DNA from: Stutzerimonas stutzeri
GTDB taxonomy: Bacteria; Pseudomonadota; Gammaproteobacteria; Pseudomonadales; Pseudomonadaceae
Assembly (NCBI RefSeq): GCF_015291885.1
Contig: NZ_CP036186.1
Coordinates: forward strand, 124,001 to 188,000
Direction: 5' to 3'
DNA: 64,000 nucleotides
The stretch's first letter is position 1. Each line of letters opens with the position of its first letter. Shown here piece by piece: positions 2,010 to 63,371 of the stretch. The notes under the pieces were generated by a model, which was not told the DNA's origin, ran no database searches, and saw nothing but the letters and a program-made list of their open reading frames with translations. A program made the position numbers and the translations under genes.

Positions 2010-3154
2010 CAGCCCATCTCCATGAAGAACAGCGCGGCGATGGCATCCAGCAGGATCACCATGAAGATCGCCTGGACCACGCTTGAAGTGGTGTGCTCGC
2101 CAACTGATTGGGCGCTGCCGGTGACCTTGAAGCCTTCCAGGCAACCGATCACCGCGATTACAAAGGCGAACACCGGTGCTTTGGCTAGCCCAACCAGAAA
2201 ATGGCTGACGGCGATGTCGCGCGCCATGATGTTGAAGAACATCGTTGGTGAGATGTCCAGCGCCAGGACGCACACCACCAGCCCGCCAGCGATGCCGCTG
2301 AGCATGCCGACGAAGGTCAGGATCGGCAGCGTGATCAGCATCGCCAGCACTCGCGGCAGCACCAATAGCTCGATGGGGCTCAAACCTAGGGTGCGGATCG
2401 CGTCGATCTCCTCGTTCGATTTCATCGAACCGATCTGCGCAGCGAAGGCGCTGGCGCTGCGCCCGGCAAGCAGAATCGCCGCCAGCAGCACACCGAACTC
2501 GCGCAGGAAGGAAAAGCCCACCAGGTTGACGGTGTAGATGGTCGCGCCGAAGTCGGCGAGCACCGTCGCGCCAAGAAAGGCCACCACCGCGCCGACCAGA
2601 AAAGTCAGCAGCGCGACGATCGGCACCGCGTCCAGCCCGGTCTGCTCGATATGTACGGCCAGTGAGGTCAGCCGCCAGCGCCGCGGCCGCGGCAGCGTCA
2701 GCAGCAACGTCTGCAGGGTCAGGCCAATGAAGCCGAGCAGCGCGCGCTGCTGCTTCCACACCGCCGCGACCGTGCGGCCGATATGCGCCAGCACATAGCC
2801 GAATTCATAACCGCGTGGCGACTCGGCGGCATCCGGTTGGTCCAGGGCGGTGGCGACTGTGCGCAGCAGCGCCAGGCGTTCGGCTGGCAACTGCGGCGCC
2901 CAGGCTTCGATGGCGGCGATCCGCTCGGGGCCCAGCAGCTCCACCAGCAGGCCGGCGCCCGCCGTATCCAGCGCCCCGAGCCCGCTCAGCTCGATCTGGC
3001 TGCGCTCGTCGATCCGCGCCCTGAGCCGCTGCACCTCTCGGCGCAGTGCCGCGTAATGGGCGAGGGTCCAGTCACCGACGATGCGCGCCCGCAACGGCGA
3101 AGCCCCTTGATCGAGGGTCACCGAACCGGGAGACGAGGACAGGGTGGCGCTCAT
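2006..3154 (-). CDS. MlaE family ABC transporter permease with N-terminal STAS-like domain
   Basis: The 382-residue protein has two parts. Residues 1 to about 110 resemble a STAS domain (LSGLGALDTAGAGLLVELLG). The remainder is an MlaE permease with hydrophobic helices and the conserved cytoplasmic loop GSMKSNEEIDAIRTLGLSP. The frame stays open to 3223, but I prefer the ATG at 3154 (MSATLSSSPG) because it begins just before the STAS-like fold; its Shine-Dalgarno is weak. It is the first gene of the four-gene lipid-transport operon. A fused STAS domain on the permease is common in pseudomonads, where the classical Mla system uses a separate MlaB. Confidence 0.88.
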   Translation of the reverse strand: MSATLSSSPGSVTLDQGASPLRARIVGDWTLAHYAALRREVQRLRARIDERSQIELSGLGALDTAGAGLLVELLGPERIAAIEAWAPQLPAERLALLRTVATALDQPDAAESPRGYEFGYVLAHIGRTVAAVWKQQRALLGFIGLTLQTLLLTLPRPRRWRLTSLAVHIEQTGLDAVPIVALLTFLVGAVVAFLGATVLADFGATIYTVNLVGFSFLREFGVLLAAILLAGRSASAFAAQIGSMKSNEEIDAIRTLGLSPIELLVLPRVLAMLITLPILTFVGMLSGIAGGLVVCVLALDISPTMFFNIMARDIAVSHFLVGLAKAPVFAFVIAVIGCLEGFKVTGSAQSVGEHTTSSVVQAIFMVILLDAIAALFFMEMGW

Positions 3155-3322
3155 CTTCTGCAAACGGGTGCCTATGTCGGGCGATGGAGTCCTGATTGAT
3201 GCTAGCAGGGTTCCGCCTGGCAAGACAGGAGAAGGTCACCTGCGCGTCGCAGCTGGCCCACCGGCGACAGGCGACGGTGCCCAGGGCCGGGCCATGGGCG
3301 GCATTAGTAAAAGGCTGCCTCG

Positions 3323-4459
3323 TCAAAGCGCGCCGTTGCGCTCGAGCCGGTACGTGCTGATAGCCTCGTACACAGCTTTGCGCAGGCGGTTGATGCCGCC
3401 AATGGGACGATGCTCCGGCAACGCGTGCCAGGGGTTGAAGCTGAGGTTGTCGCAAGCGAGGTTCTGTTCTGGGCTGTCGAAGTCCTGCGGCGGCAGGCGG
3501 ATGTCGGCGACTGTCTCGAACGGCGCTATGGCTTCGTCCCACTCGATGCTGGTGTCCTCAATGGGCATGTAGTGCTCGGCGTTCTGCCGCTGCACCTGCA
3601 GGGCGAAGCAGGCGGGCGCGCGGTCGAGGGACAGCTGCTGGTAGAGCGCACTGCGCAGGAAGTTCGGCAGGTCGCGGTTCTGCTCGGGCAACTGGTAGGT
3701 CGGGCAGTTTTCCGGCGTCGGGATGACCCGGTACTTGATGTTGTGCGAGCCGAGCTTGTACGGCGCAACCGAGCTGTAGGTGGTGGCCACCGGGCTCTCG
3801 GGCGCGGGCGCCAGGGTCTGCAGCGCGATGAACAGATGGCGCAGCTCCCAGCTGCGCGGATCGATGCTCGGGAAGAACGCCAGCGCCTTCTTGCCCTGCG
3901 CCTGGGCGGCGAAGTTGCTGCGGTATTCGGCAACGTCACGGACGAAGAACACCGGGTGGTTGAACATCACGAAGTCCTGCTCGCCGGCGTGGCGCGGGTC
4001 ACGCGTGAGCTTTTCCCCTGGCACGTCGAGTAACTTGATTGCCATGCCGCGGGCGTCTTTGATGCGATCGAACTGCGGGTAGGCGTTGCCGTTGGATAGC
4101 CGCACCCAGGACTGCCAGGTCTTGCCCGGCTCGCTGAACACGCCCTGACGCAACGCTGGATCCAGGTCGGCGCGTACGCTGACTTCGGCGCGTACGCAGC
4201 CGTGGGCCTTTGCATGGGCGTCGCGCAGCACGCGGGTGTTCTCGCTGTGCTGTTCGACCACGGCAATGGCGTCGGCGATGATCGCCTGGGTGTCGGCCGC
4301 TTCGCTCGGCGCGATGACCTCTTCGCCGGAGACAGGGCCACGATGGGTGAGGTGAAAGTGCACGGCGGCAATCGCCCAGCCGGCCAGGCCCAGGGCGGTG
4401 ACGGCAAGCAGCAGTCGGCCCAGCAGGCGACCGATCCAGAGCCAGAGTCTTGTAAGCAT
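3323..4459 (-). CDS. catalase family protein (peroxidase-like), membrane-anchored
   Basis: The 378-residue protein starts with a hydrophobic helix (about residues 8-30, WIGRLLGRLLLAVTALGLAG), followed by a minimal catalase-like core. Core features include GCVRAEVSVRADLDPALRQG, WVRLSNGNA and DARGMAIKLLDVPGEK, which resemble the distal-side and NADPH-independent catalase-related family. It is shorter than typical catalases (about 480 aa) and probably acts in or facing the periplasm. It lies 27 bases after the large c-type cytochrome gene on the same strand. The two genes commonly occur as a pair, so a joint role in peroxide handling is likely but unproven. Heme ligation was not checked residue by residue. 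Confidence 0.85.
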   Translation of the reverse strand: MLTRLWLWIGRLLGRLLLAVTALGLAGWAIAAVHFHLTHRGPVSGEEVIAPSEAADTQAIIADAIAVVEQHSENTRVLRDAHAKAHGCVRAEVSVRADLDPALRQGVFSEPGKTWQSWVRLSNGNAYPQFDRIKDARGMAIKLLDVPGEKLTRDPRHAGEQDFVMFNHPVFFVRDVAEYRSNFAAQAQGKKALAFFPSIDPRSWELRHLFIALQTLAPAPESPVATTYSSVAPYKLGSHNIKYRVIPTPENCPTYQLPEQNRDLPNFLRSALYQQLSLDRAPACFALQVQRQNAEHYMPIEDTSIEWDEAIAPFETVADIRLPPQDFDSPEQNLACDNLSFNPWHALPEHRPIGGINRLRKAVYEAISTYRLERNGAL

Positions 4460-7416: not shown

Positions 7417-8608
7417 GGAAACTCTGAAGAAGACTTCCTGATTTGGCAAAATAGCCCGACCCCACCCGCCGAGTTCCCCGATGAAGCAGATGACCTTCGC
7501 CGACGCCGAGTATGCCGGCAAGCGCAAGCAGACCCGCAAGGAGTTGTTCCTGATCGAGATGGATCAGGTCGTGCCGTGGAAAGGGTTGATCGCCTTGATC
7601 GAGCCCCATTACCCCAAGGGTGAAGGTGGCCGTCCGGCCTACCCGCTGATGGCGATGCTGCGCGTACATCTGCTGCAGAACTGGTTTGGCTACAGCGACC
7701 CGGCCATGGAGGAGGCGCTGTACGAGACTACGATCCTTCGCCAGTTTGCCGGGCTGAATCTGGAGCGCATCCCTGACGAAACGACCATTCTCAACTTCCG
7801 GCGGTTGCTGGAGAAACATGAGCTGGCGGCTGGCATCCTGGCTGTGATCAACGGCTACCTGGGTGACCGCGGCCTGTCGCTGCGCCAAGGCACGATCGTC
7901 GACGCCACGCTGATTAGCGCGCCGAGCTCCACCAAGAACAAGGACGGCAAACGCGACCCGGAGATGCATCAGACCAAGAAGGGCAACCAGTATTACTTCG
8001 GGGCCAAGGCACACATTGGTGTCGACGATGAGTCGGGCTTGGTGCACAGCGTCGTGGTCACCGCGGCCAACGTGGCGGATGTCACGCAGGTCGACAAATT
8101 GCTGCATGGCGATGAGAACGTAGTCTGTGCCGATGCCGGTTACACCGGCGTGGAAAAGCGTCCTGAACATGAAGGCCGCCCGGTGATCTGGCAGGTTGCG
8201 GCACGGCGCAGCACCTACAAGAAGCTCGATAAGCGCAGCGCGCTGTACAAAGCCAAGCGCAAGATCGAGAAGGCCAAGGCCCAGGTGCGCGCGAAGGTCG
8301 AACATCCGTTCCGAGTGATCAAGCGCCAGTTCGACTACACCAAGGTGCGCTTCCGGGGCCTGGCGAAAAATACGGCGCAGATGGTCACGCTGTTTGCTCT
8401 GTCGAATCTGTGGATGGCCCGCCGATATTTACTGACGAATGCAGGAGAGGTGCGTCTGTAATGCAGGAAATGGCTGCTGCGAGGCGCTCGCAGCGTTTAA
8501 AACACAGCAGAAGACAGACGATCTGATCGTTTTTTGATCGTCTTCTGCTTTTGAAAAATCAGCGGAGCCTGAAGTCAGCAAAAAATGGGCGACTATTTCA
8601 GAGCATCC
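7417..8608 (+). mobile_element. IS5-family insertion sequence, copy 1 (complete)
   Basis: The element is 1192 bp. The left end GGAAACTCTGAAGAAGAC and the inverted right end (read from the minus strand) GGATGCTCTGAAATAGTC are imperfect inverted repeats sharing CTCTGAA. It is flanked by a TTAG duplication at 7413-7416 and 8609-8612, fitting the 4-bp YTAR target used by the IS5 subgroup. It contains one transposase gene. A second copy in opposite orientation lies at 9701-10891. The insertion splits an unknown minus-strand gene. Confidence 0.92.
7481..8461 (+). CDS. IS5 family transposase (copy 1)
   Basis: The 326-residue DDE transposase has the N-terminal MKQMTFADAEYAGKRKQTRK, the first catalytic Asp region (GTIVDATLI), the second (VVCADAGYTGVEKRP) and the C-terminal Glu region (KVEHPFRVIKRQF), plus the DUF772-like helical region GRPAYPLMAMLRVHLLQNWFG. 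It is full length and has no internal stop, so it could be active. It differs from the copy at 9846-10826 in a small number of residues, for example LISAPSS against LIHAPSS and FGAKAHIGVDDE against FGMKAHIGADAE, so the two insertions are not a very recent duplication of one another. Confidence 0.95.
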   Translation: MKQMTFADAEYAGKRKQTRKELFLIEMDQVVPWKGLIALIEPHYPKGEGGRPAYPLMAMLRVHLLQNWFGYSDPAMEEALYETTILRQFAGLNLERIPDETTILNFRRLLEKHELAAGILAVINGYLGDRGLSLRQGTIVDATLISAPSSTKNKDGKRDPEMHQTKKGNQYYFGAKAHIGVDDESGLVHSVVVTAANVADVTQVDKLLHGDENVVCADAGYTGVEKRPEHEGRPVIWQVAARRSTYKKLDKRSALYKAKRKIEKAKAQVRAKVEHPFRVIKRQFDYTKVRFRGLAKNTAQMVTLFALSNLWMARRYLLTNAGEVRL

Positions 8609-9700: not shown

Positions 9701-10891
9701 GGATGGTCTGAAGTAGTCAGGTATTTCTGGCTGACTCCAGCCCTTGCCGATTTCAAAACGGTGATTCGGCTAAAAAACGATCAAATCATCCCCTATTTCC
9801 GGATTTATAGCCGGCGCGAGCACCTCGCGCCGGCCATTTCCCGCATTACAGACGCACCTCTCCTGCATTCGTCAGCAAATGTCGGCGCGCCATCCACAGG
9901 TTCGACAGCGCGAACAGTGTCACCAACTGCGCGGTGTTCTTCGCCAGGCCACGGAAGCGTGTCTTCACGTAGCCGAATTGGCGCTTGATCACCCGGAACG
10001 GGTGCTCGACTTTGGCGCGCACCTGGGCCTTGGATTTCTCGATCTTGCGCTTGGCTTTGTACAGCGCACTGCGCTTACTCAGCTTCTTGTACATACTGCG
10101 GCGGGCCGCAATCTGCCAGATCACCTCCCGGCCTTCATGTTCCGGGCGTTTCTCTACGCCGGTGTAACCCGCGTCGGCGCCCACCATGTTTTCCTTTCCA
10201 TGCAGCAGTTTGTCGACCTGGGTAACGTCAGCAACGTTGGCTGCCGTCCCCACCACGCTGTGCACCAGGCCAGACTCGGCATCCGCGCCGATGTGGGCCT
10301 TCATGCCGAAGTAATACTGATTGCCCTTCTTGGTCTGGTGCATTTCCGGGTCACGCTTACCGTCCTTGTTCTTGGTCGAACTCGGCGCATGGATCAGCGT
10401 GGCATCGACGATGGTGCCCTGGCGCAGCGACAGGCCCCGATCGCCCAGGTAACCATTGATCACCGCCAGAATCCCGGCCGCCAACTCGTGCTTCTCCAGC
10501 AGGCGACGGAAATTGAGGATGGTGGTTTCGTCGGGAATACGCTCTAGGTTCAGCCCGGCAAACTGGCGCAAGATTGTGGTCTCGTACAGCGCCTCCTCCA
10601 TCGCCGGATCGCTGTAGCCGAACCAGTTCTGCATCAAATGTACGCGCAGCATCGCCATCAGCTGATACGCCGGACGACCACCTTCACCCTTGGGGTAGTG
10701 CGGCTCGATCAGGGCAATCAAACCCTTCCACGGCACCACCTGATCCATCTCGATCAGGAACAACTCTTTGCGGGTCTGCTTGCGCTTGCCGGCGTACTCG
10801 GCGTCGGCGAAGGTCATTTGCTTCATCGGGAAACTCGGGCAACGGGATCGGCGTATTTCACCAGATTCGGGAAGTCTTTTTCAGACCATCC
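9701..10891 (-). mobile_element. IS5-family insertion sequence, copy 2 (inverted relative to copy 1)
   Basis: The element is 1191 bp. Both ends begin GGATGGTCTGAA when read inward, followed by GTAGTC on the left and AAAGACTTCC on the right. The flanking tetranucleotides differ: CTAG at 9697-9700 and TTAG at 10892-10895. Unlike copy 1 it therefore has no perfect target duplication. The genes on its two sides also do not join, which suggests adjacent deletion or recombination after insertion. With copy 1 it forms an inverted pair enclosing 8609-9700. Confidence 0.9.
9846..10826 (-). CDS. IS5 family transposase (copy 2)
   Basis: This 326-residue transposase is nearly identical to the one at 7481-8461 and has the same catalytic regions (GTIVDATLI, GADAGYTGVEKRP, KVEHPFRVIKRQF). 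The reading frame is complete. The order and spacing of start codon, terminal repeats and stop match copy 1. It may supply transposition activity in trans to copy 1, because the terminal repeats are closely related. Confidence 0.95.
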   Translation of the reverse strand: MKQMTFADAEYAGKRKQTRKELFLIEMDQVVPWKGLIALIEPHYPKGEGGRPAYQLMAMLRVHLMQNWFGYSDPAMEEALYETTILRQFAGLNLERIPDETTILNFRRLLEKHELAAGILAVINGYLGDRGLSLRQGTIVDATLIHAPSSTKNKDGKRDPEMHQTKKGNQYYFGMKAHIGADAESGLVHSVVGTAANVADVTQVDKLLHGKENMVGADAGYTGVEKRPEHEGREVIWQIAARRSMYKKLSKRSALYKAKRKIEKSKAQVRAKVEHPFRVIKRQFGYVKTRFRGLAKNTAQLVTLFALSNLWMARRHLLTNAGEVRL

Positions 10892-11380: not shown

Positions 11381-12465
11381 CTGAGTGCAACACCTGACCT
11401 TTCCGGTACGGTGCTGCCCCTATGTCTTATACCGAACTCAGCGTTGAAGAGCGCGCCACCATTCAAATCGGTCGTACCCAAGGCTTCAGCCTGCGCAGGA
11501 TTGCCTGCTTGATCAACCGATCCCCTTCGACCATCAGCCGTGAGCTGCGCCGTAACCGAGGTGCTTGCGGTGGCTACTCGGCCCGCCTGGCCCAGCAGCA
11601 AATGCAGGCCCGCCGCCAGGTTTGTCGACCGATGCGAAAACTGTTGCCGGGTAGCGAGCGCTTCGAACTGGTGACCCATATGCTGCGTGAGCGTTTGTCT
11701 CCCGAGCAGATTGCCGGCAAGCTGCGCAGCATGAACATACCCAACCTGCGAGATGCCTACGTCTGTCGCGAGACGATCTACAACGCGATCTATGCCCTGC
11801 CAGTGGGTGAGCTGCGTAAGGAGCTGATCATCTGTCTGCGCCAAGGCAAGACGACGCGCCGGCCGCGCTCTGGTGGCGTGGATCGGCGCGGCCAGATCCC
11901 CGAGATGGTCAGTATTCATGTGCGCCCGCCGGAGATTGAAGACAGGCTGATGCCGGGGCATTGGGAAGGCGACCTCATCAAGGGTAAGGCCAACGCCTCG
12001 TCCGTCGGTACGCTGGTGGAACGCACCAGTGGCTACCTGATGTTGGTGAAGATGAACGACGCGACGGCGACTTCGGCACTGGAAGGCTTCAGCGCCGCGC
12101 TCAATAGCATGCCGCTGGAGATGCGCAAGAGCATGACTTACGACCAGGGCCGGGAGATGGCGCGACACGCCGAGATCACCCAAAGAACCGGCGTGGCGAT
12201 CTACTTCTGCGACCCGCACAGCCCCTGGCAGCGCGGCAGCAACGAAAACATCAACGGCCTGATTCGCCAGTACTTGCCCAAGGGCACAGACCTGTCGGTA
12301 CATAGCCAGGAGAAGCTGGACGCCATTGCGCTGCAACTGAACATGCGACCGCGCAAGCGCTTCGACTTCAAATGCCCCATCGAGGTGATGGGAGAGGTCA
12401 TGCAAAATTCCATGGCAATGCGGCATGATGCTCCGGCTTCAATTCAATAACCGTGTTGCACTCAG
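11381..12465 (+). mobile_element. IS30-family insertion sequence
   Basis: The element is about 1085 bp, bounded by the perfect 13-bp inverted repeats CTGAGTGCAACAC (11381-11393) and GTGTTGCACTCAG (12453-12465). It contains one IS30-type transposase. No clear target duplication is visible (AAA on the left, CTC on the right). On the left it abuts the toxin remnant; on the right it abuts an open frame that is the interrupted 5' part of the tnsB-like gene. It therefore marks the junction of two different mobile cargoes. Confidence 0.9.
11422..12450 (+). CDS. IS30 family transposase
   Basis: The 342-residue protein has an N-terminal helix-turn-helix (SLRRIACLINRSPSTISREL), then a DDE core: GHWEGDLIKG (first Asp), MTYDQGREMARH (second Asp) and WQRGSNENINGLIRQYLPKG (catalytic Glu). 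This is the signature arrangement of IS30 transposases. The length is standard and there is no internal stop. It lies wholly inside the inverted repeats. Confidence 0.96.
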   Translation: MSYTELSVEERATIQIGRTQGFSLRRIACLINRSPSTISRELRRNRGACGGYSARLAQQQMQARRQVCRPMRKLLPGSERFELVTHMLRERLSPEQIAGKLRSMNIPNLRDAYVCRETIYNAIYALPVGELRKELIICLRQGKTTRRPRSGGVDRRGQIPEMVSIHVRPPEIEDRLMPGHWEGDLIKGKANASSVGTLVERTSGYLMLVKMNDATATSALEGFSAALNSMPLEMRKSMTYDQGREMARHAEITQRTGVAIYFCDPHSPWQRGSNENINGLIRQYLPKGTDLSVHSQEKLDAIALQLNMRPRKRFDFKCPIEVMGEVMQNSMAMRHDAPASIQ

Positions 12466-13923
12466 CTCCTGCAACCGCCAGGTGTTTCCAGAGAAGGAAA
12501 GCATGCTGGTTATAACGTAAACGAAGACATGAAGGAAAAGATTCAGGCTGGTTTTATCCGGCATAACAGTATTAAGCTGACTTGGAGTCAAGTGTATACA
12601 AAAGTCCTAACGGCGACTTTTAAGTGCGAAATACGAACAAGTTCTGCAAACAGAAGGTTTGTCATTCAACCTAGTGGCGACCCTTTTCCCTCCTACAACC
12701 AGTTTTTGTATTGGGTCAGAAAGCTGAATAATCGAGATCTGTTACAGGAATCAAGGATAGGTAAGCACGCGCTCCGTAGTCGCTCGGGATCCAAGGGCAG
12801 TTTCTCGCAGAGGCTATCCAATGTTTACGAGAAAGTTGAGTTTGACGGTTATTACATCAACGAGCGTTTACAGGGCATCGTAGAAGGCGGATCTGTCGAA
12901 AGCTTCTGCGTTGTTACTGCTGTATGTGCCCTATCCGGGGCGATTTTAGGCATTGGCTTTTCTGAGCGTAAAGAAACCCAAGAAGCTTATAATATGGCGC
13001 TGTTTTCGATGGCCATCCGTAAGTCTGTTTATGGACAACTTATAGGACTTGATATCAAGGATGATGAGTGGCCGTGTATTGGCTTACCTCCGGATTTCAT
13101 AACAGACCGCGGCCCTGGGTCGTCGTTACGCCCCGAAGATAATATCAATTGGCTTACGTCACTTGAACTAACGCCAAGTTATTCCGGGCAATCAAAGGCT
13201 ACGGTTGAATCTTCCCATAGACGGAACAAAAAGATTCCTGGCCCCCCACGGTATCATCAGAGCAACTTGAACTTCATTGAGATGGTGAAACGTGAAGTCT
13301 TGCGGGCAATGCTGTCTAACGCAACATCTGACGCTTCTATGCGCATGACTAATGAAATGTTGCTTGAAGGGTTTATGCCAACACCGGCAAATATTTATAA
13401 TTTTTATAACCAGCGCGGAAGGACCAATGCCGTTGAGGTCCCATTCGAGGATATCGTGCCGCTTTTTTTGACGCCACACGCAGTCAAAGTTGACCGTGAG
13501 GCGGTCTGGTTCAGGGAGTTGCGGTACTCTTGCCGCGAATTCAGGGATTTAGGCGTTTTTGATAGAGCAGCGCGGGGCGGAAGCTTCGAGTTAAGCGCTT
13601 ATGTCATGACTATGTGTGTCCGGTATATCTGGGTCGAGCTGGATGGAACTATATATAAGCTGCGCTTTGAGGCAACTGTTCGGCAAGATGTAGATGCTTC
13701 CTACATATCACTAGACGAAGCGCTGAAGCTTGAAGACCTGAAGAAGGCAGGCAAATGGGTTTTGAGCGAGCAGAGGCCTCTTATAGCCGCAGAGTTCGAC
13801 CAGCGCTTCAGGAATGAAACAGGTAAAGAATGGCATGGCAGCGTAGCAAAGCCAGGCCGTCCTCGCAAAGATGGCGCATCGCGGCGGGATGAGGCGGACT
13901 ACGCTAGGTTTAATAAACCATGA
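12466..13923 (+). pseudogene. Tn7-like transposase TnsB-like, 5' end cut off by IS30 element
   Basis: From ATG 12529 the frame encodes 464 residues with an rve-type DDE core: Asp106 in VEFDGYYINE, Asp193 in PDFITDRGPG and Glu227 in SKATVESSHRRNK, a D-D-34-E spacing typical of TnsB/MuA. A beta-barrel-like C-terminal region (IWVELDGTIYKLRFEATVRQ) and a basic tail follow. The frame is open upstream of ATG 12529 all the way to the IS30 edge (LLQPPGVSREGKHAGYNVNE) with no start and no good Shine-Dalgarno, so I infer that the N-terminal DNA-binding part was lost when IS30 inserted. The core is intact; the end-binding domain probably is not. ATGA overlap with the next gene shows one transcript. Confidence 0.75.
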
Positions 13924-15260
13924 TAGAGATGACTGAAGAATATCTGCGGATGGCAGATCCCGCTAGGATAACTCAAAAAATCACTGTCACGCCTGAGCCT
14001 TTGGTTGGGCTCTCAGATCTGCACCCTGTGGCAGCTGCGTATCAATTGAGGAGTCAGCTCACCAAACTATATTTGCCTACAGAATTTGTAGTTGGCTTGA
14101 TTAGTGAACTGCTAGTTCATTCATCACTGCTGTTCAGTGATCGCTACTCAAATGAGAGATCTTACGCTCAACATGTCTACACTCCCTTTGAGTCAGGCGT
14201 GGTTCCTTTGTGTTTAACGGGACTCGCTGGCATAGGTAAGTCAAGGGCGTTGATCGCTATCAGGGATTACATGCCGGGTCCCGGCACCCACTTTTCTAAC
14301 CTAATGCATGGCGAAATTAAAAACCAGTCTCACTTGTATGCAAGCGCAAATGCGAAAGATAGCGCCCGACAAGTGATTGAAGATCTATGCATTTCGCTAG
14401 ACATCGAGGTGTCGAAACAGGTCAACGCAGCGAAATTGCTTTCCGTGTGTCGTAGACAGGCCAGCATTTCACGTGTAACGCACATCTTTATAGATGAAAT
14501 GCAGTTTTTTACTAAAGGTAATAGCACTGACAGTTTAGCTAAGCTTTTGCTTTCGGTGGCATCGATTGGTATCCCCACGCTATATCTATGTAACTTCAGC
14601 CTGCTACATAAATTATTTACGCGAAATAGTGAAGATAGGCACCGTCTCTTGTCGCAGCCTAAGATCATGACTCCGGATCTACCAGATAGTCGAGACTGGA
14701 GGCTTTATATACTTGCGTGTGACAGAGCTTTGGGTGGTGTCTTCAAAGGAAGTAATGAGGTATTGGTTAGGGCTATCTATGACTTCACATTTGGAATAAA
14801 GAGATTTGTAGTTGAGCTAATAACACTTTCATATTTGATAGCTCGAAGTCTTAATTCAGAGCGACTGACGCTAGATATGTTTAGACAAGCGTACTTCTCC
14901 GTTGAATATACCGCGTTCCGTCAAGATGTGATGTTGTTAAATCGTCAGGCGATAGAGAACAAGGCTTCTCGCAGAGATTTATGGTGTCCATTTGAGCTCC
15001 CGCCCGGATATAAAACAAGAGCGGCAGAGATTGCTACTGAGTCGAGGAACCGAAAATTCTCTATGGAGACTCTTAAAAGCGCCTTGAGCATGTCGGAGCG
15101 TAAGGCGCTTAATGAGCATTTTCCGTCTAAGCGTGCTCCAATTGACTCAAAGCAAACTTTGAAATCGAGGGAGGCCGTCAGTAGTGACGACGCCGGCCTA
15201 ATTGATGCGCTAAATCTCTATAGTGAAATTTTAAGCCGGCCCCGGCGCAATATTAAATAA
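13920..15260 (+). CDS. Tn7-like transposition ATPase, TnsC-like
   Basis: The 446-residue AAA+ protein has Walker A GLAGIGKS (residues 101-108) and Walker B HIFIDEMQ (188-195), followed by a sensor-like segment PTLYLCNFSLL and an arginine-rich region RNSEDRHRLLSQPK. This order is that of TnsC/TniB regulators that link target choice to the TnsB transposase. It overlaps the tnsB-like gene by ATGA. It is longer than TniB (about 300 aa) and closer to TnsC (about 550 aa). No tnsA, tniQ/tnsD or CRISPR effector gene is seen next to it, so targeting is unknown. Codons are AT-rich compared with core genes. Confidence 0.8.
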   Translation: MIEMTEEYLRMADPARITQKITVTPEPLVGLSDLHPVAAAYQLRSQLTKLYLPTEFVVGLISELLVHSSLLFSDRYSNERSYAQHVYTPFESGVVPLCLTGLAGIGKSRALIAIRDYMPGPGTHFSNLMHGEIKNQSHLYASANAKDSARQVIEDLCISLDIEVSKQVNAAKLLSVCRRQASISRVTHIFIDEMQFFTKGNSTDSLAKLLLSVASIGIPTLYLCNFSLLHKLFTRNSEDRHRLLSQPKIMTPDLPDSRDWRLYILACDRALGGVFKGSNEVLVRAIYDFTFGIKRFVVELITLSYLIARSLNSERLTLDMFRQAYFSVEYTAFRQDVMLLNRQAIENKASRRDLWCPFELPPGYKTRAAEIATESRNRKFSMETLKSALSMSERKALNEHFPSKRAPIDSKQTLKSREAVSSDDAGLIDALNLYSEILSRPRRNIK

Positions 15261-15271
15261 AGATAAACGCC

Positions 15272-15994
15272 CTAATCAGTTTTTAAGGATTTTGTGGTGC
15301 CTTCGGAAATTAATAACCCTTGCTTTGGAAGTATAAAAGGCTTAAATGTAACCTTTGTCTCGCTTGCATCCATTCTTTTGATTAAATAGAAAAGGTCATC
15401 TGACTCAGCGACGATGCATCCTACATGTGATTCTGTGTTTTTATAGCGAAGCGTTTGCTCTTGGCACTTTGTAATTTTTTTGATTGCTGACTTTCTGCCT
15501 GTGTCTGAAGGCTGTTGTAGGGCGACGTTATAGATTATAAAGGCAACTACTGCGGCTATAACAACGGCGCCGACTACAACAAATGCAGATTTAAGCTCTA
15601 AGGCTCTATCACGTAGCCGTGCGAACAGGCCGCTTGGCTGTGCAGGGGTGGGGGGAACTCTCCCAGGTTTCTCAAGTAGTGCTAAGATTAACGCTGGCAC
15701 TGCGACCAGAGCAGCTGCGAATAATACCGCAAATATCAGGGTGCTAATGCTAGCCCCTCCGTACGCAAGCAACGTCTGCGTGCTGATATTTATTCTACTC
15801 ATGGGTACTTCGAGTGTTATGTAATACTTTTCAAGATGGGCATATCCACTGAGGGTAAATATACCTATCGCTATAGCAACAACTAACGTTACCTCTATGC
15901 GAAGGAATCGGCTGAAGGACACCGTGCCTGCGTCCTTAGATGGTGCGGACTCGTTTTCGAGGCAGTCAGATTCATTAGTTTGCCGTTGTGCCAT
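15272..15994 (-). CDS. hypothetical membrane protein, three transmembrane segments
   Basis: I do not recognise this 240-residue protein. It has a polar N-terminus, then three hydrophobic segments: about 32-50 (VTLVVAIAIGIFTLSGYA), 77-105 (ASISTLIFAVLFAAALVAVP) and 135-157 (SAFVVVGAVVIAAVVAFIIY). A soluble C-terminal domain of about 80 residues follows, with two Cys (ITKCQEQ and HVGCIVAES). It is convergent with the tnsC-like gene, only 11 bases away, and shares its base composition, so it is probably cargo or a neighbouring transferred gene. A similar layout occurs in small membrane effectors and sensors, but no function can be assigned. Confidence 0.6.
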   Translation of the reverse strand: MAQRQTNESDCLENESAPSKDAGTVSFSRFLRIEVTLVVAIAIGIFTLSGYAHLEKYYITLEVPMSRINISTQTLLAYGGASISTLIFAVLFAAALVAVPALILALLEKPGRVPPTPAQPSGLFARLRDRALELKSAFVVVGAVVIAAVVAFIIYNVALQQPSDTGRKSAIKKITKCQEQTLRYKNTESHVGCIVAESDDLFYLIKRMDASETKVTFKPFILPKQGLLISEGTTKSLKTD

Positions 15995-56964: not shown

Positions 56965-57510
56965 TCAGACGCCGCTTTCGCCTGCCTCTGGCACGTGCAC
57001 CCCGGCCAGCGTGGAACGGCTGTCGCCTGCGCCATCGGTGATCACGCTGAAACTGCCATCGGTCTCCAGCACCACCGCCTCGATGCCATCCAGCGCGGCC
57101 AGCCCCTGACTGCGCGCGGCGGCCCGCACCTCGTCCTCGGTCACCCGCGCCACGCGCATGGCATCGCCGAGAAAACGCCCGCGAAAGAACAGCAGCGCCG
57201 GCTCGCCCGTCACCGTACGCCGCACCCACGCTACCCGCACGCTGGACCAGGTGACCACATACTGCAGCCCGATCAACAAGGCGAACGCCAGCACCCCCTC
57301 GGCCAGCGACACATCGCGATTGAGCAGAATCGTCGCGAAGGTCGAACCCAGCGCCACCGTCACCACCAGATCGAACGCATTCATCTTCGACAACGTCCGC
57401 CGCCCCGACAGGCGCAACAGCAGCACCAGACTGATATAGGCCAGCACGCCCACCACCAGCGTGCGTATCAACGTCGTTCCGCTACTGAAAAACATGCCTT
57501 CCACGATCAC
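56965..57510 (-). CDS. DUF421 domain-containing membrane protein
   Basis: The 181-residue YetF-like protein has three N-terminal helices (TLIRTLVVGVLAYISLVLLL, FDLVVTVALGSTFATILLNR and GVLAFALLIGLQYVVTWSSV) and a cytoplasmic domain with GEPALLFFRGRFLGDAMRVA and VTEDEVRAAARSQGLAALDG. The segment SGRRTLSKMNAFDLVVTVAL is the family signature. It is the last core gene before the AT-rich reverse transcriptase island. Confidence 0.9.
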   Translation of the reverse strand: MIVEGMFFSSGTTLIRTLVVGVLAYISLVLLLRLSGRRTLSKMNAFDLVVTVALGSTFATILLNRDVSLAEGVLAFALLIGLQYVVTWSSVRVAWVRRTVTGEPALLFFRGRFLGDAMRVARVTEDEVRAAARSQGLAALDGIEAVVLETDGSFSVITDGAGDSRSTLAGVHVPEAGESGV

Positions 57511-57892
57511 CTCCGCAACTGAGCCATGCAGGGTGGACAGGGTAGGCGGGCGGACAGTGCAGACGGCGCGAGCGACCGCGCGTCAGGCGACAGTGTGAAA
57601 ACTGAGGATTAATCCATCGTCTGCTTTACCCATACGGAAGCAGTGGCTAATGTGCGGTTATGCATAACTTTACTCCCATTCAGGGCGTACGCCTTGAACA
57701 CCATCGATTCCAAGGAAGGTGAAATGAATGTCCTCTACCTATTCGCTCCGCACATCTACCGTCCCAGCTGGTAAGTCAATTCCTGTAGCAACAGATGACT
57801 TGCTGGGCCTCACCACTTTGGAATTGGACAATGCAGCTAGATGAATTCAGTTGCTTATGGCTAGCTATGAGTGCGATATCGGAGATTGAACC
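57511..57892. other. left flank of the reverse transcriptase island
   Basis: The first 100 bases are GC-rich like the core; from about 57600 the DNA becomes AT-rich, marking the island edge. A 16-codon frame at 57724-57774 (MNVLYLFAPHIYRPSW) has AAGGAAGG before it and could be a leader peptide. No direct repeat or integrase that would explain insertion was noticed. Confidence 0.4.
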
Positions 57893-59155
57893 ATGCTAGA
57901 TCAAAATTTTTCCCCAGCAAATCTCGAGAAATTTATCTATAGTAAATCTGATTTAATCCAACTTAAGTTGGGCAGGGACGAAGTCGAACGTAAGAAAAAG
58001 CTAACCGAACTAAGCTATCGTTTAGAAGATGAATTCTTATTCTCAGGAGTAAGGTCTAGAAAAGTTAATGGTAAGGTAGTGCACACGCCTGAAGAAGGTG
58101 GAGAAGCTTTATTGCTTCGAAAACTAAATGATAATTTAGTGCGTGTTTTCGGTATTAGGCAATGTAATCGTGCGGACACAACAAAACAAATCTATACATT
58201 GCTGCAGGAAGCAAATCCTTTTACTGTGTTTCGATTAGATGTAAAGGGTTTTTACGAGCATATCTCGTTAGAGGAAACTCTAAAGCCTTTATACAACAGC
58301 ACGGTCTTGTCTCCTACATCAAAAAAAATACTAAAATCCATTGAGAGCGATAGGCGGTTTCTTAACAGGCTTCCTCGGGGCTTAAATATTAGCGCGTCGC
58401 TCTCTGAGCTGAAAATGCGTAATTTTGATCGTGCGGTATCAGAATTAGAAGACATATATTTTTACGCAAGATATGTGGATGATATTTTTGTTTTTTCATA
58501 CAAATCAGATTTTGAGCTTGAAAGGATAACTAATCTACTTCCTAGTGGGTTGTATGCGAATTCAGAAAAAAGCTACGTAAAAAGGGTAGATTGTAGGAAT
58601 CTTCGACCATTAAATAATAATCCTTGTGCTATTACATGTAAATGTAAACCAGATCTCGCATTGAATCACGCGGTTGAATACTTGGGGTATCAGTATAATT
58701 TTTCTGATGTGCCTTACTCCACCAAAGGAAAGCCGAGAGAAGTCAGCGTAACTTTGTCTGCCCGCAAAATACAAAAAATAAAAACGCGGATTATTAAGTC
58801 ATTTCTAAGTCATATTCGCAATCCTGATTTTGAACTTCTAGAAAGCCGACTTCGGTTCTTGACAGGGAATTGTGAATTTTCAGTAAAAGGGAATGTAATG
58901 GTTCGCAGTGGACTAGCGTATAATTTTCCTTTATTAAAAGAAGATGATGAATCTTTAAAAGAACTAACTGTTTTCCAAAGAAAGATTATACATTGTAAGA
59001 ACGGCGCTATGGGTACGAAATTGGCTTCTGTTTTGTCTGCCTCGCAGCGCAAAAAACTAGGCAAACTTTCCTTTGCTTCAGGGCACAAAAATAAGATCAC
59101 CTATCGCTTTTCAGAAGATAAATTAGCAAAAATAAAAAAGTGTTGGGCGAAATGA
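57893..59155 (+). CDS. drt3a: reverse transcriptase, Drt3a-like (first RT of a DRT3 defence system)
   Basis: The 420-residue protein carries an RT domain: motif A FRLDVKGFYEHISLEE (Asp116), a motif B-like PRGLNISASLSELKM (161-175) and motif C YARYVDDIFVFSY (YVDD at 194-197), so the active site looks intact. After it comes a basic C-terminal region (TLSARKIQKIKTRIIKSFLS) that could bind nucleic acid. The gene overlaps a second, longer RT by ATGA and is followed by a structured RNA candidate, matching the two-RT DRT type 3 layout (UG3 plus UG8 RTs). In that system the first RT is thought to use an ncRNA template. No maturase or group II intron domain is seen. AT-rich codons suggest transfer. 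Confidence 0.85.
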   Translation: MLDQNFSPANLEKFIYSKSDLIQLKLGRDEVERKKKLTELSYRLEDEFLFSGVRSRKVNGKVVHTPEEGGEALLLRKLNDNLVRVFGIRQCNRADTTKQIYTLLQEANPFTVFRLDVKGFYEHISLEETLKPLYNSTVLSPTSKKILKSIESDRRFLNRLPRGLNISASLSELKMRNFDRAVSELEDIYFYARYVDDIFVFSYKSDFELERITNLLPSGLYANSEKSYVKRVDCRNLRPLNNNPCAITCKCKPDLALNHAVEYLGYQYNFSDVPYSTKGKPREVSVTLSARKIQKIKTRIIKSFLSHIRNPDFELLESRLRFLTGNCEFSVKGNVMVRSGLAYNFPLLKEDDESLKELTVFQRKIIHCKNGAMGTKLASVLSASQRKKLGKLSFASGHKNKITYRFSEDKLAKIKKCWAK

Positions 59156-61092
59156 AAAAGAAAAGAGTCAACCGTGGAGATAGTCTAAGGGCTCTTCTCA
59201 CAGAAACTACTCCCTATGAGTTGCCGCTCACCATAAACAACTCCGGATTTTATCGCCAGTTGAAGCGAGCTGACGTAGTCGCTGACCTGAATAATTTGCT
59301 CGATGTAAAGCCCGCAAAAAGAACGGTAGCTTTACACTACAAAATAACAAAAGACGAGAGATCGCTAAGGACATTGTCCTGTCCTCATCCTACGGCTCAG
59401 ATAAACATATGCGAGTTATATAATTCGTACGATGCTCTAATGCTTTTTCTATGTAACAAAAGTCGTTTTTCACTTAGATATCCAAGCAAAACTGCCAGTT
59501 ATTTTTACGATAAAAGCGGCGAAATTCAGTCTGGTCGATATCGCGAGAGAACACCTCTGGCGGAGGTGGATGATCAAATAAGTGCTGCTGAGCAAGATCA
59601 TGCTAGCTCCTATTTCGCATATAAAAAATATAATTTGCTATATAAGTTCTACGAGTCTTATGAGTATCAAGGGTTAGAGAAAAAATATTCGCACTTGCTT
59701 CGATTTGATATAAGCAAGTGTTTTGATTCTATTTATACACACACTATTGCATGGGCGGTTAAAAATAAGAGCTACGCTAAATCTAACAATGGTTTTTCAT
59801 TCGAAAACCAGTTTGATAAAGTGATAAGTAACAGTAATCATGGCGAGACTAATGGTATTATTATTGGTCCAGAAGTTTGCCGAATTTTTGCTGAGATAAT
59901 ATTGCAGCGGATTGATAGGGAGGTTGCCTATAAGTTAAAGGGTGTCGCGGGAGAAGGTTCATACTCGATACGCCGTTACGTTGATGATTACTTTGTTTTT
60001 TCGTCTCACCCCGATATCTCTAGGACGATATTTAGTATATTTAAGTCTGAGTTGGAACGGCATAAGCTCCACGTTAATGACAGCAAAACTGAAGAATTTA
60101 ATGCTCCATTTATAACTCCGATATCAGTAGCTAAAAGCGAGATTTCCTCCAGGTTAGGAAGCATTCTAGACGCATTATTTCAGCCAGTGGAGGGCTCGTC
60201 AGATATATTGCTGGTGAATCCCACCAAAGGTCCCCATGATCTGAGTCATAAGTTAATTAAGTCGATAAAAGAGATTCTTCACTCTTACCAAGTTGGTTTT
60301 CATAGTGTCGCAGGCCACGCCCTTGCTATCATTAATAAGAAGATGAATGGGCTGCTTGCAGTAAAGGTAGGCGCAGATAATGAAGGGGCCATATTCTCAA
60401 TAATTTTTGCGTTGTTAGAGTTTTCTTTCTTTGTATCTAGTATGGCTCCGCGGGTAAGAAGTATTTACTTAACTACCAAAAGCTGCGTGTTGGCGCTTAA
60501 TTTGTGCCCGGAACTGTCTTACGATAAAGATAACAACATAAGAAAGAAGATTCATGATGAATGTCTTGCTCTAATAAGCAAGATATGCAGAAATCAACAT
60601 TACGAAAAGAGTAACTCAGTAGAGTTCAGTAATCTCTTAGTTTGCATTGGTTTGATTGGTGAAAACTATCGTATAAACCAAGAAACACTTAGGGCGGTTG
60701 TAAAAGAGTATCTACCTAAAGATCCTACTGAGTCGCTTGGCTATTTTGAGTTGATCTCATTAATTTTTTATATTAGGGATGATGATCAATACGATGAGTA
60801 CCGCGCAGAACTTGGGGATTTCATTAAGCAAAAAATAACTGCCTTAGATCCGTCTATCTACTCGGAAAGCGCTCACCTATTGCTCGATTGTATTAGCTGT
60901 CCGTATCTAAGTGCTGAGTTCAAATCAGAATTGATATCGATTGCATATGAGCATAAAGATATATCAATTAGTGTTTCAGAACAGCGCAGATTGATAAGAA
61001 ACCTTGCTAAAGATGAGTGGTTCTGCGTTTGGAGCGGAGATGATAAAATTTTTGAGCTTTTAGAGAAAAAATCATTGAAAAGCCTCTACTAA
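59152..61092 (+). CDS. drt3b: reverse transcriptase, Drt3b-like (second RT of a DRT3 defence system)
   Basis: The 646-residue protein starts at ATG 59152, which overlaps the first RT's stop (ATGA). Its RT core has motif A LLRFDISKCFDSIYTHT (Asp186), a motif B-like SNHGETNGIIIGPEVCRIFA and motif C RRYVDDYFVFSS (YVDD at 276-279). After about residue 330 there is a long, helix-rich C-terminal part (about 310 residues) without a recognised fold. It is a different RT class from the first, with only short common motifs. In DRT3 the second RT makes a partner strand; my memory of that work is that it does so without a nucleic acid template. The function here is by analogy. Confidence 0.85.
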   Translation: MKKKRVNRGDSLRALLTETTPYELPLTINNSGFYRQLKRADVVADLNNLLDVKPAKRTVALHYKITKDERSLRTLSCPHPTAQINICELYNSYDALMLFLCNKSRFSLRYPSKTASYFYDKSGEIQSGRYRERTPLAEVDDQISAAEQDHASSYFAYKKYNLLYKFYESYEYQGLEKKYSHLLRFDISKCFDSIYTHTIAWAVKNKSYAKSNNGFSFENQFDKVISNSNHGETNGIIIGPEVCRIFAEIILQRIDREVAYKLKGVAGEGSYSIRRYVDDYFVFSSHPDISRTIFSIFKSELERHKLHVNDSKTEEFNAPFITPISVAKSEISSRLGSILDALFQPVEGSSDILLVNPTKGPHDLSHKLIKSIKEILHSYQVGFHSVAGHALAIINKKMNGLLAVKVGADNEGAIFSIIFALLEFSFFVSSMAPRVRSIYLTTKSCVLALNLCPELSYDKDNNIRKKIHDECLALISKICRNQHYEKSNSVEFSNLLVCIGLIGENYRINQETLRAVVKEYLPKDPTESLGYFELISLIFYIRDDDQYDEYRAELGDFIKQKITALDPSIYSESAHLLLDCISCPYLSAEFKSELISIAYEHKDISISVSEQRRLIRNLAKDEWFCVWSGDDKIFELLEKKSLKSLY

Positions 61093-61103
61093 GACTTTAC
61101 TCT
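61075..61103 (+). promoter_or_regulatory. candidate promoter for the downstream RNA
   Basis: TTGAAA (61075-61080) and TACTCT (61098-61103) are separated by exactly 17 bases, overlapping the end of the second RT gene. A start about seven bases later would fall near 61110, right before the 5' arm of the closing stem. The -10 is weak, so this is only a candidate. Confidence 0.4.
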
Positions 61104-61109
61104 CACATT

Positions 61110-61260
61110 CGTTCAAATGAGGTGTCACTTAACCACATTCTTTGTGTATAGGAATGTAGCTTTACAGTAATCATACTTTCCGCGGAAGTACGTTTGCTGG
61201 ATAAGCACACACACTAAACCTTCATTTGAGTAAAGGCCCACTATTTTAGTGGGCTTTTTT
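61110..61260 (+). ncRNA. structured RNA candidate of the DRT3 system, with ACACACAC tract
   Basis: About 150 bases with no frame, directly after the second RT. A closing stem pairs TCAAATGA (61113-61120) with TCATTTGA (61222-61229). Inside are hairpins ACATTC/GAATGT (61135-61140 and 61152-61157) and TACTTTCC/GGAAGTA (about 61173-61189). A CACACACAC tract lies at 61206-61214 in an apparently single-stranded stretch just before the 3' arm. A perfect terminator follows. As I recall, DRT3 ncRNAs carry a conserved ACACAC template copied by Drt3a to give GT-repeat DNA; this tract is a strong match. The UGUG in the loop at 61142-61147 could pair with it. Exact ends are unproven. Confidence 0.75.
61236..61260 (+). 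terminator. intrinsic terminator of the RT operon / ncRNA
   Basis: A perfect 8-bp stem GCCCACTA/TAGTGGGC with a three-base loop is followed by TTTTTTATTTT. It ends the RNA candidate six bases after its closing stem. Confidence 0.93.
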
Positions 61261-61289
61261 ATTTTCTGTGGCGGTCTTTTTTAGCGAAG

Positions 61290-61410
61290 TAACCAAAACG
61301 TAGCGCGTGGAAAAGGCTTCGCCGTTTTCCACCCTACGCATGCGAGGTGTCGGCAGAGGAGTGCGGAGTGGCGTAGGGTGGACAACGCTGCGCTTGTCCA
61401 CCGATGCGAA
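61290..61410. repeat. inverted-repeat hairpins right of the RT island
   Basis: Two related palindromic units: TGGAAAAGGCTTCGCCGTTT closing with TCCA, and GTAGGGTGGACAACGCTGCG closing with CTTGTCCACC. Both carry CCTACGC/GCGTAGGGTGG ends. They resemble a second class of genome-wide palindromic repeat and mark return to core-like composition. No gene is seen between 61260 and 61535. Confidence 0.6.
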
Positions 61411-61535
61411 TCGACGGGCAGGGCAGGTGGTTGGCGAAACGCTCGCGGGCTCCGGACGTCCAACCGGGATGCCGCGCCCGCGCGGTCGTATTTGCGAACG
61501 ACGTTCGCCCACCTCGCCACAAAGCAGACCTCCTC

Positions 61536-63371
<1,836 letters not shown>

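What the first reader, a model, noticed from the sequence alone, without database searches (positions are those of the whole stretch)
57893..61260. Two-reverse-transcriptase defence locus (DRT3 type) with an adjacent structured RNA
Two different RTs with intact YVDD sites overlap by ATGA. They are followed at once by a compact RNA candidate ending in a perfect terminator. The island is AT-rich between GC-rich core genes. This is the arrangement of DRT type 3 anti-phage systems (UG3 and UG8 RTs plus ncRNA), a class with few studied members. A Pseudomonas-type member with all three parts visible is worth testing.
Basis: partly seen in the sequence, partly recalled or inferred. Interest (0 to 1): 0.93.

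Follow-up and report, generated by a model that had tools for sequence, protein, structure and literature searches.

The report
A DRT3 two-reverse-transcriptase antiphage system
This looks like a complete new example of a recently explained bacterial antiphage system (DRT3), in which two reverse transcriptases and a small RNA are thought to make a repetitive double-stranded DNA that shuts down infected cells; it is a new member of a known kind.

Summary
An AT-rich cassette (about 57656-61280) carries drt3a (57893-59155), drt3b (59152-61092, ATGA overlap) and a terminator-ended structured RNA. Both proteins pass the curated Drt3a and Drt3b cut-offs and match the solved DRT3 complex. Drt3b keeps the residues reported to select dA and dC (E23, R244) and the priming tyrosine (Y646). 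ACACAC lies within 300 nt of the drt3b stop in 89 of 95 other loci, against 2 to 7 in control regions. Most likely product: poly(GT)/poly(AC) double-stranded DNA causing abortive infection, inferred from published E. coli systems; nothing was tested here. All 14 measured same-genus relatives carry other DNA at this site; 4 of 9 sampled gave clear defence-like hits. New member of a known kind. Side lead: in Snodgrassella the likely DRT3 RNA lies upstream of drt3a on the opposite strand, apparently stranded by an inversion.

The parts
57656..61280 (.). Variable cassette holding the DRT3 locus
   Evidence: Homology to 13 of 15 same-genus relatives stops at 57654/57655; right-flank homology starts at 61281-61299 in 12 of 15, at 61334 in 2 and at 61506 in 1
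57893..59155 (+). drt3a, RNA-templated reverse transcriptase (UG3), 420 aa
   Evidence: NF041747 335 bits (cut-off 200); PADLOC Drt3a 1.7e-122; PDB 9z6y_A 7.3e-50
59152..61092 (+). drt3b, protein-templated and protein-primed reverse transcriptase (UG8), 646 aa; E23, R73, R244, Y276-V277-D278-D279, Y646
   Evidence: NF041748 607 bits (cut-off 350); PADLOC Drt3b 1.1e-209; PDB 26cz and 9z6y_H; residues
61093..61258 (+). Candidate DRT3 noncoding RNA (5' end unknown)
   Evidence: Fold z = -5.03, 0 of 200 shuffles; position and layout as in relatives
61111..61122 (+). 5' strand of the closing stem
   Evidence: Pairs with 61220-61231, 12 bp, 1 of 2000 shuffles
61159..61206 (+). Hairpin directly 5' of the template in the predicted fold
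   Evidence: Minimum-energy structure
61206..61214 (+). CACACACAC, putative template for poly(GT)
   Evidence: 0.46% of shuffles; ACACAC near the drt3b stop in 89 of 95 other loci, 16 of 16 and 9 of 9 further ones
61220..61231 (+). 3' strand of the closing stem
61232..61258 (+). Intrinsic terminator, 12 pairs then T run

Best explanation
It is a complete DRT3 antiphage locus. Shown by sequence: a Drt3a gene, a Drt3b gene and a downstream structured RNA with an AC-repeat and a terminator. Inferred from the published E. coli systems: Drt3a copies the AC segment of the RNA over and over into poly(GT); Drt3b, primed from Tyr646 and using E23 and R244 in place of a nucleic-acid template, makes poly(AC); the strands anneal to double-stranded DNA that the host RecBCD nuclease keeps low; a phage that blocks RecBCD, or otherwise triggers the system, lets this DNA build up and the cell stops growing before new phage is released.
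For: Curated Drt3a and Drt3b models passed and solved DRT3 chains matched. Gate, stacking and priming residues E23, R73, R244, Y646 (E22, R71, R241, Y666 of the published protein) invariant in 46 aligned rows, the window's included. AC run inside a significant closing stem. ACACAC near the drt3b stop in 89 of 95 other loci against 4 of 95, 7 of 88, 2 of 95 and 2 of 87 in controls and 6.06 on average in shuffles; further loci 16 of 16 and 9 of 9. Near relatives of both solved systems are in the set and show it. Host encodes RecB and GreA.
Against: No expression, product or defence data. 6 of 95 other loci lack ACACAC at that place. No sigma-70-like promoter match upstream of drt3a, no Rfam family at its gathering score. 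Without the terminator the fold is only z = -2.6. RecC and RecD were not searched. Protein identity to the tested systems is low (Drt3a 31-32%; nearest named Drt3b proteins 40-42%).
Confidence: 0.88

Rival explanations
1. A DRT3-like locus that has lost its function or makes a different DNA repeat: the proteins and the RNA remain, but the product is not poly(GT/AC) or no longer protects.
For: The closest tested systems are distant; activity cannot be read from sequence; the template run is longer (9 nt) than the six-base core reported.
Against: Both frames and both YVDD sites are intact; the gate and priming residues are kept; the template keeps the AC alternation. In the fetched loci no other repeat was seen together with changed gates: the 6 loci with D in place of E at the gate all keep ACACAC.
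Confidence: 0.08
2. The RNA part is a chance AC run next to an ordinary terminator, and only the two proteins matter.
For: ACACAC alone appears in 18% of shuffles of this stretch; the fold without the terminator is only z = -2.6; no Rfam match at gathering score.
Against: The 9-base run appears in 0.46% of shuffles and the enclosing stem was reached in 1 of 2000. The same placing recurs in 89 of 95 other loci.
Confidence: 0.03
3. The pair belongs to another reverse-transcriptase class (retron, group II intron or another UG class).
For: Weak shared RT-domain scores to such models.
Against: Those scores are far below cut-off, while Drt3a and Drt3b models are passed along their whole length.
Confidence: 0.01

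Closest known systems
E. coli DRT3 of Wang et al. 2026 (PMC13174585); I infer it to be PDB 26cz from its 667-residue numbering. L082 here encodes a near-identical Drt3b
   Same: Gene order, gate and priming residues, RNA after drt3b with ACACAC, closing stem and following terminator
   Different: Drt3a 32% identical; template CACACACAC here, ACACAC in L082; other host; no activity data here
DRT3 complex of PDB 9z6y/9z6z (I take it, from recall, to be Deng et al. 2026, which I did not read). L085 here encodes a near-identical Drt3b
   Same: Both proteins match its chains along their length; AC template after a hairpin
   Different: Drt3a 31% identical to that of L085; shorter template (CACACAC) in L085
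Drt3b proteins of Pseudomonas fluvialis, P. donghuensis and Pseudomonas sp. 5P_5.1_Bac1
   Same: Nearest named proteins among the 120 listed, full length, called Drt3b by NCBI
   Different: Only 40-42% identical; the closer listed proteins (71, 60 and 44%) carry no source name, and their DNA was not fetched

Membership tests
DRT3 | Drt3a (UG3-type) reverse transcriptase | tested here: met
   NF041747 335 bits, cut-off 200; PADLOC 1.7e-122
DRT3 | Drt3b (UG8-type) reverse transcriptase | tested here: met
   NF041748 607 bits, cut-off 350; PADLOC 1.1e-209
DRT3 | Adjacent genes in the order drt3a, drt3b, each with an intact YVDD | tested here: met
   57893-59155 and 59152-61092, ATGA overlap
DRT3 | Structured RNA after drt3b with an ACACAC template | tested here: met
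   CACACACAC at 61206-61214 inside a 12-bp closing stem; sequence and fold only
DRT3 | Drt3b dA gate, dC switch and priming tyrosine (E22, R241, Y666 in the published numbering) | tested here: met
   E23, R244, Y646 by alignment
DRT3 | RNA expressed and bound by the proteins | not testable with these tools
   Needs RNA-seq or pull-down
DRT3 | Makes poly(GT)/poly(AC) double-stranded DNA | not testable with these tools
   Needs biochemistry
DRT3 | Protects against phage | not testable with these tools
   Needs plating
Retron (St85-type RT) | Retron RT by curated model | tested here: not met
   NF038233 37 bits (Drt3a) and 21.3 bits (Drt3b) against cut-off 235
Group II intron RT | Maturase RT by curated model | tested here: not met
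   TIGR04416 37 bits (Drt3b) against cut-off 300; no listed hit for Drt3a

The most novel reading that the evidence does not exclude
The DRT3 RNA is an independent gene that works in trans, so the protein pair and the RNA can be physically separated. The natural case is Snodgrassella, where an inversion appears to have left the RNA about 1.4-1.5 kb upstream of drt3a on the opposite strand. By this reading the window's RNA is also a separate unit, and its longer template (9 nt) sets the register or length of the product.
Probability: 0.4. Interest if true: 0.5.

Novelty: new member of a known kind. Interest (0 to 1): 0.4.

Why it matters
It adds a complete, divergent DRT3 from a Stutzerimonas-like bacterium, whereas the mechanism was worked out on E. 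coli systems. It lets one ask whether the RNA-templated and the protein-templated halves always make complementary repeats. The survey here points that way: the AC template and the E/D and R gates are kept together in most of the loci fetched, and no switch to another repeat was seen. The insertion site also collects other defence-like genes in relatives.

Tried and rejected
Rfam gave three hits up to E = 1 in 57001-62000, none at its gathering score (best 26 bits against 41; two overlap the terminator). The promoter scan of 57500-61560 found 5 sites against 8.3 in shuffles, none between 57500 and drt3a. An exact scan of viral contigs for 26 bases of the window's RNA found nothing. The phage collection gave 3 records, none covering 80% of Drt3b; the plasmid collection 8 records, all under 60% identity. 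Structure prediction was not run, because the sequences already match solved complexes. That RNA template and protein gates might switch together to another repeat was looked for in the fetched loci; no case was found. L042 stays unresolved.

Full report
Observation. A GTG at 59140 would extend the second ORF by four residues; with the ATG at 59152 the PADLOC match already runs from profile position 2. The GTG form was not scanned.

Identity of the proteins. ORF 57893-59155 scores 335 bits against NF041747 Drt3a (cut-off 200) and ORF 59152-61092 scores 607 bits against NF041748 Drt3b (cut-off 350). PADLOC gives Drt3a at 1.7e-122 and Drt3b at 1.1e-209. Both match chains of the solved complex 9z6y, and Drt3b also matches 26cz. 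Retron and group II models stay far below their cut-offs. The own genome holds one Drt3b match.

Residues. PMC13174585 (seen: abstract and outline, sections 5, 6, 7, 9, 10, 22 and 37, part 1 of the figure legends, and passages found by term) reports E22, R71, R241 and Y666 of E. coli Drt3b as dA gate, stacking residue, dC switch and DNA-priming tyrosine. By alignment with 26cz (an offset of 108 inferred from Y666) these are E23, R73, R244 and Y646 here. Each is invariant in 46 aligned rows, the window's included. In 98 loci, one of them the window's own copy, the gate is E in 87, D in 6, R in 1 and unaligned in 4; R244 is R in 97 and unaligned in 1 (L098); Y646 is Y in 93, another letter in 3 and unaligned in 2. 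The single R is L079, whose match starts only at residue 47, so its alignment there is doubtful. R73 is R in 94, T in 2, K in 1 (L098) and unaligned in 1.

The RNA. After the drt3b stop, 61093-61258 holds a 12-bp closing stem (61111-61122 with 61220-61231), inner hairpins, CACACACAC at 61206-61214 and the terminator. The long AC run appears in 0.46% of shuffles, the six-base core in 18%. The stem was reached in 1 of 2000 shuffles. The paper reports a conserved ACACAC in a loop; mutating that segment abolished defence and the poly(GT) product. A second ACACACAC lies inside drt3b at 59737 and is taken as chance.

Is the template general? Of 95 other loci with enough downstream DNA, 89 have ACACAC on the coding strand within 300 nt of the drt3b stop. 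Controls: 4 of 95 on the reverse strand, 7 of 88 upstream of drt3a, 2 of 95 at the end of drt3b, 2 of 87 starting 1 kb further on; shuffles average 6.06, at most 13. Left out of this count: the window's own copies (L001, L100), L049 (no downstream DNA), L097 (its downstream AC run repeats L091's), L099 (opposite orientation, counted), L101 and L102 (other RTs) and L103 (no match). The 95 are not all independent: L053 and L089, for instance, and L018, L083 and L098, look alike. Further loci: 16 of 16 (L099 and L105 are one place, and L104 and L114 look like L005 and L056) and 9 of 9 (several look like earlier loci). In folding, over 105 sequences that had the template (the window's included), the template is more open than its surroundings in 98, over 80% open in 43, spanned by at least four expected pairs in 98, and preceded within 30 nt by at least four hairpin pairs in only 55; no shuffle control was run for these. 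For the window the template is 70% open. L082 and L085 encode Drt3b near-identical by score to 26cz and 9z6y, so the set includes near relatives of the solved systems.

Misses. L006, L011 and L066 have only CACAC at the place, and L073, 97% identical to L066 in Drt3b, has CACACAC. L042 has no clear template. L033 and L055 are both Snodgrassella (below).

Gates and template together. The 6 loci with D at the gate (L017, L043, L056, L075, L081, L091) all keep ACACAC, which fits the paper's finding that E22D keeps partial activity. No locus with another dinucleotide template was recognised, but only AC and CA runs were searched for.

Mechanism. Published work (PMC13174585 as above; [quoted passage not shown] Deng et al. 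2026 was not read. For this window only the parts and the residues are shown; activity, trigger and defence are inferred. The host encodes RecB (874 bits, cut-off 696) and GreA (179.6 bits, cut-off 139); RecC and RecD were not searched.

Setting. The flanking ABC transporter is 97% identical over 93% of its length to a Stutzerimonas nitrititolerans protein. Of 15 same-genus relatives fetched around the site, homology to the left flank ends at 57654 or 57655 in 13; in L170 it ends at 57295, and L179 shows none near the break. Homology to the right flank starts at 61281-61299 in 12, at 61334 in 2 and at 61506 in 1. In the 14 measured (L179 left out) the gap holds 1.4 to 6.4 kb of other DNA. I scanned 10 ORFs from 9 of these 14 gaps: four relatives gave clear defence-like hits (TIR-TM in L168, NERD-UvrD in L167, SIR2 in L178, AbiP/putative AbiC in L173), two weak ones (L177, L180) and three none (L171, L172, L174). 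So the site is variable and often holds defence-like genes. A search for papers with the words Stutzerimonas, 'defense system' and hotspot together found none.

Frequency. With a profile of this Drt3b's nearest proteins (E up to 1e-60) matches were found in 7 of 398 genomes of the family and 10 of 390 of the order, the own genome counted in both, and in 12 of 398 genomes of one sister genus (the draws overlap). With the NCBI model, 2 of 58 relatives, the own genome included, pass the cut-off.

Side finding in Snodgrassella. L033 and L055 have Drt3a and Drt3b with intact YVDD (Drt3b 58% identical to each other) but no AC template within 400 nt after drt3b. About 1.4-1.5 kb upstream of drt3a, on the opposite strand and beyond tenA (an Rfam TPP riboswitch precedes it in L033; tenA named by eye), both carry a closing stem (AAGGAGGUG, or AGGGAGGUG in L033, with CAUCUCCUU), hairpins and then ACACAC. 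Of 14 genomes of the genus, 8 have this tenA: the 3 with drt3a beside it have the element, the 5 without drt3a within the fetched stretch do not. Two of the three are close relatives, so independence is limited, and whether the 5 carry DRT3 elsewhere was not tested. In the 4 of these 5 where the neighbouring block was found, tenA lies in the opposite relative orientation. This fits a normal drt3a-drt3b-RNA cassette in which the segment tenA-drt3a-drt3b was later inverted, leaving the RNA behind. That is inference. A search for papers holding both Snodgrassella and DRT3 found none.

Verdict. A new, complete, divergent member of DRT3: well supported by sequence, ordinary in kind, useful for comparison.

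Noticed in passing
L033 about 3150-3350 and L055 about 3180-3380 (minus strand); L181-L188: Snodgrassella DRT3 loci lack the RNA after drt3b; a likely RNA (closing stem, hairpins, ACACAC) lies on the opposite strand upstream of drt3a beyond tenA, in 3 of 3 genomes with drt3a and 0 of 5 without, consistent with an inversion.
   Followed up: partly
57656-61280 and the matching gaps in L166-L178 and L180: The site between the YetF-like gene and the ABC transporter is a variable locus: each of 14 measured same-genus relatives has other DNA there; 4 of 9 sampled gave clear defence-like hits (TIR, NERD-UvrD, SIR2, AbiP/AbiC).
   Followed up: partly
about 61297-61356: A short repeat at the right edge of the cassette has further copies nearby in relatives L177, L180 and, in part, L166 and L174; it could help cassette exchange by homologous recombination.
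   Followed up: no
57724-57774 (+): A 16-codon ORF with a purine-rich stretch just before it lies inside the cassette upstream of drt3a (by eye); leader peptide or chance.
   Followed up: no
7481-8461 (+) and 9846-10826 (-): Two DDE transposases of 326 aa with the same Pfam domains in opposite orientation, bounding a lower-GC stretch.
   Followed up: no
11422-15994: An rve/HTH_38 transposase followed by three low-GC ORFs (464 aa without Pfam hit, 446 aa with AAA_22, 240 aa without hit); no PADLOC hit.
   Followed up: partly
L042 (Janthinobacterium): A DRT3 pair with YLDD in Drt3b and no ACACAC within 300 nt after drt3b.
   Followed up: no
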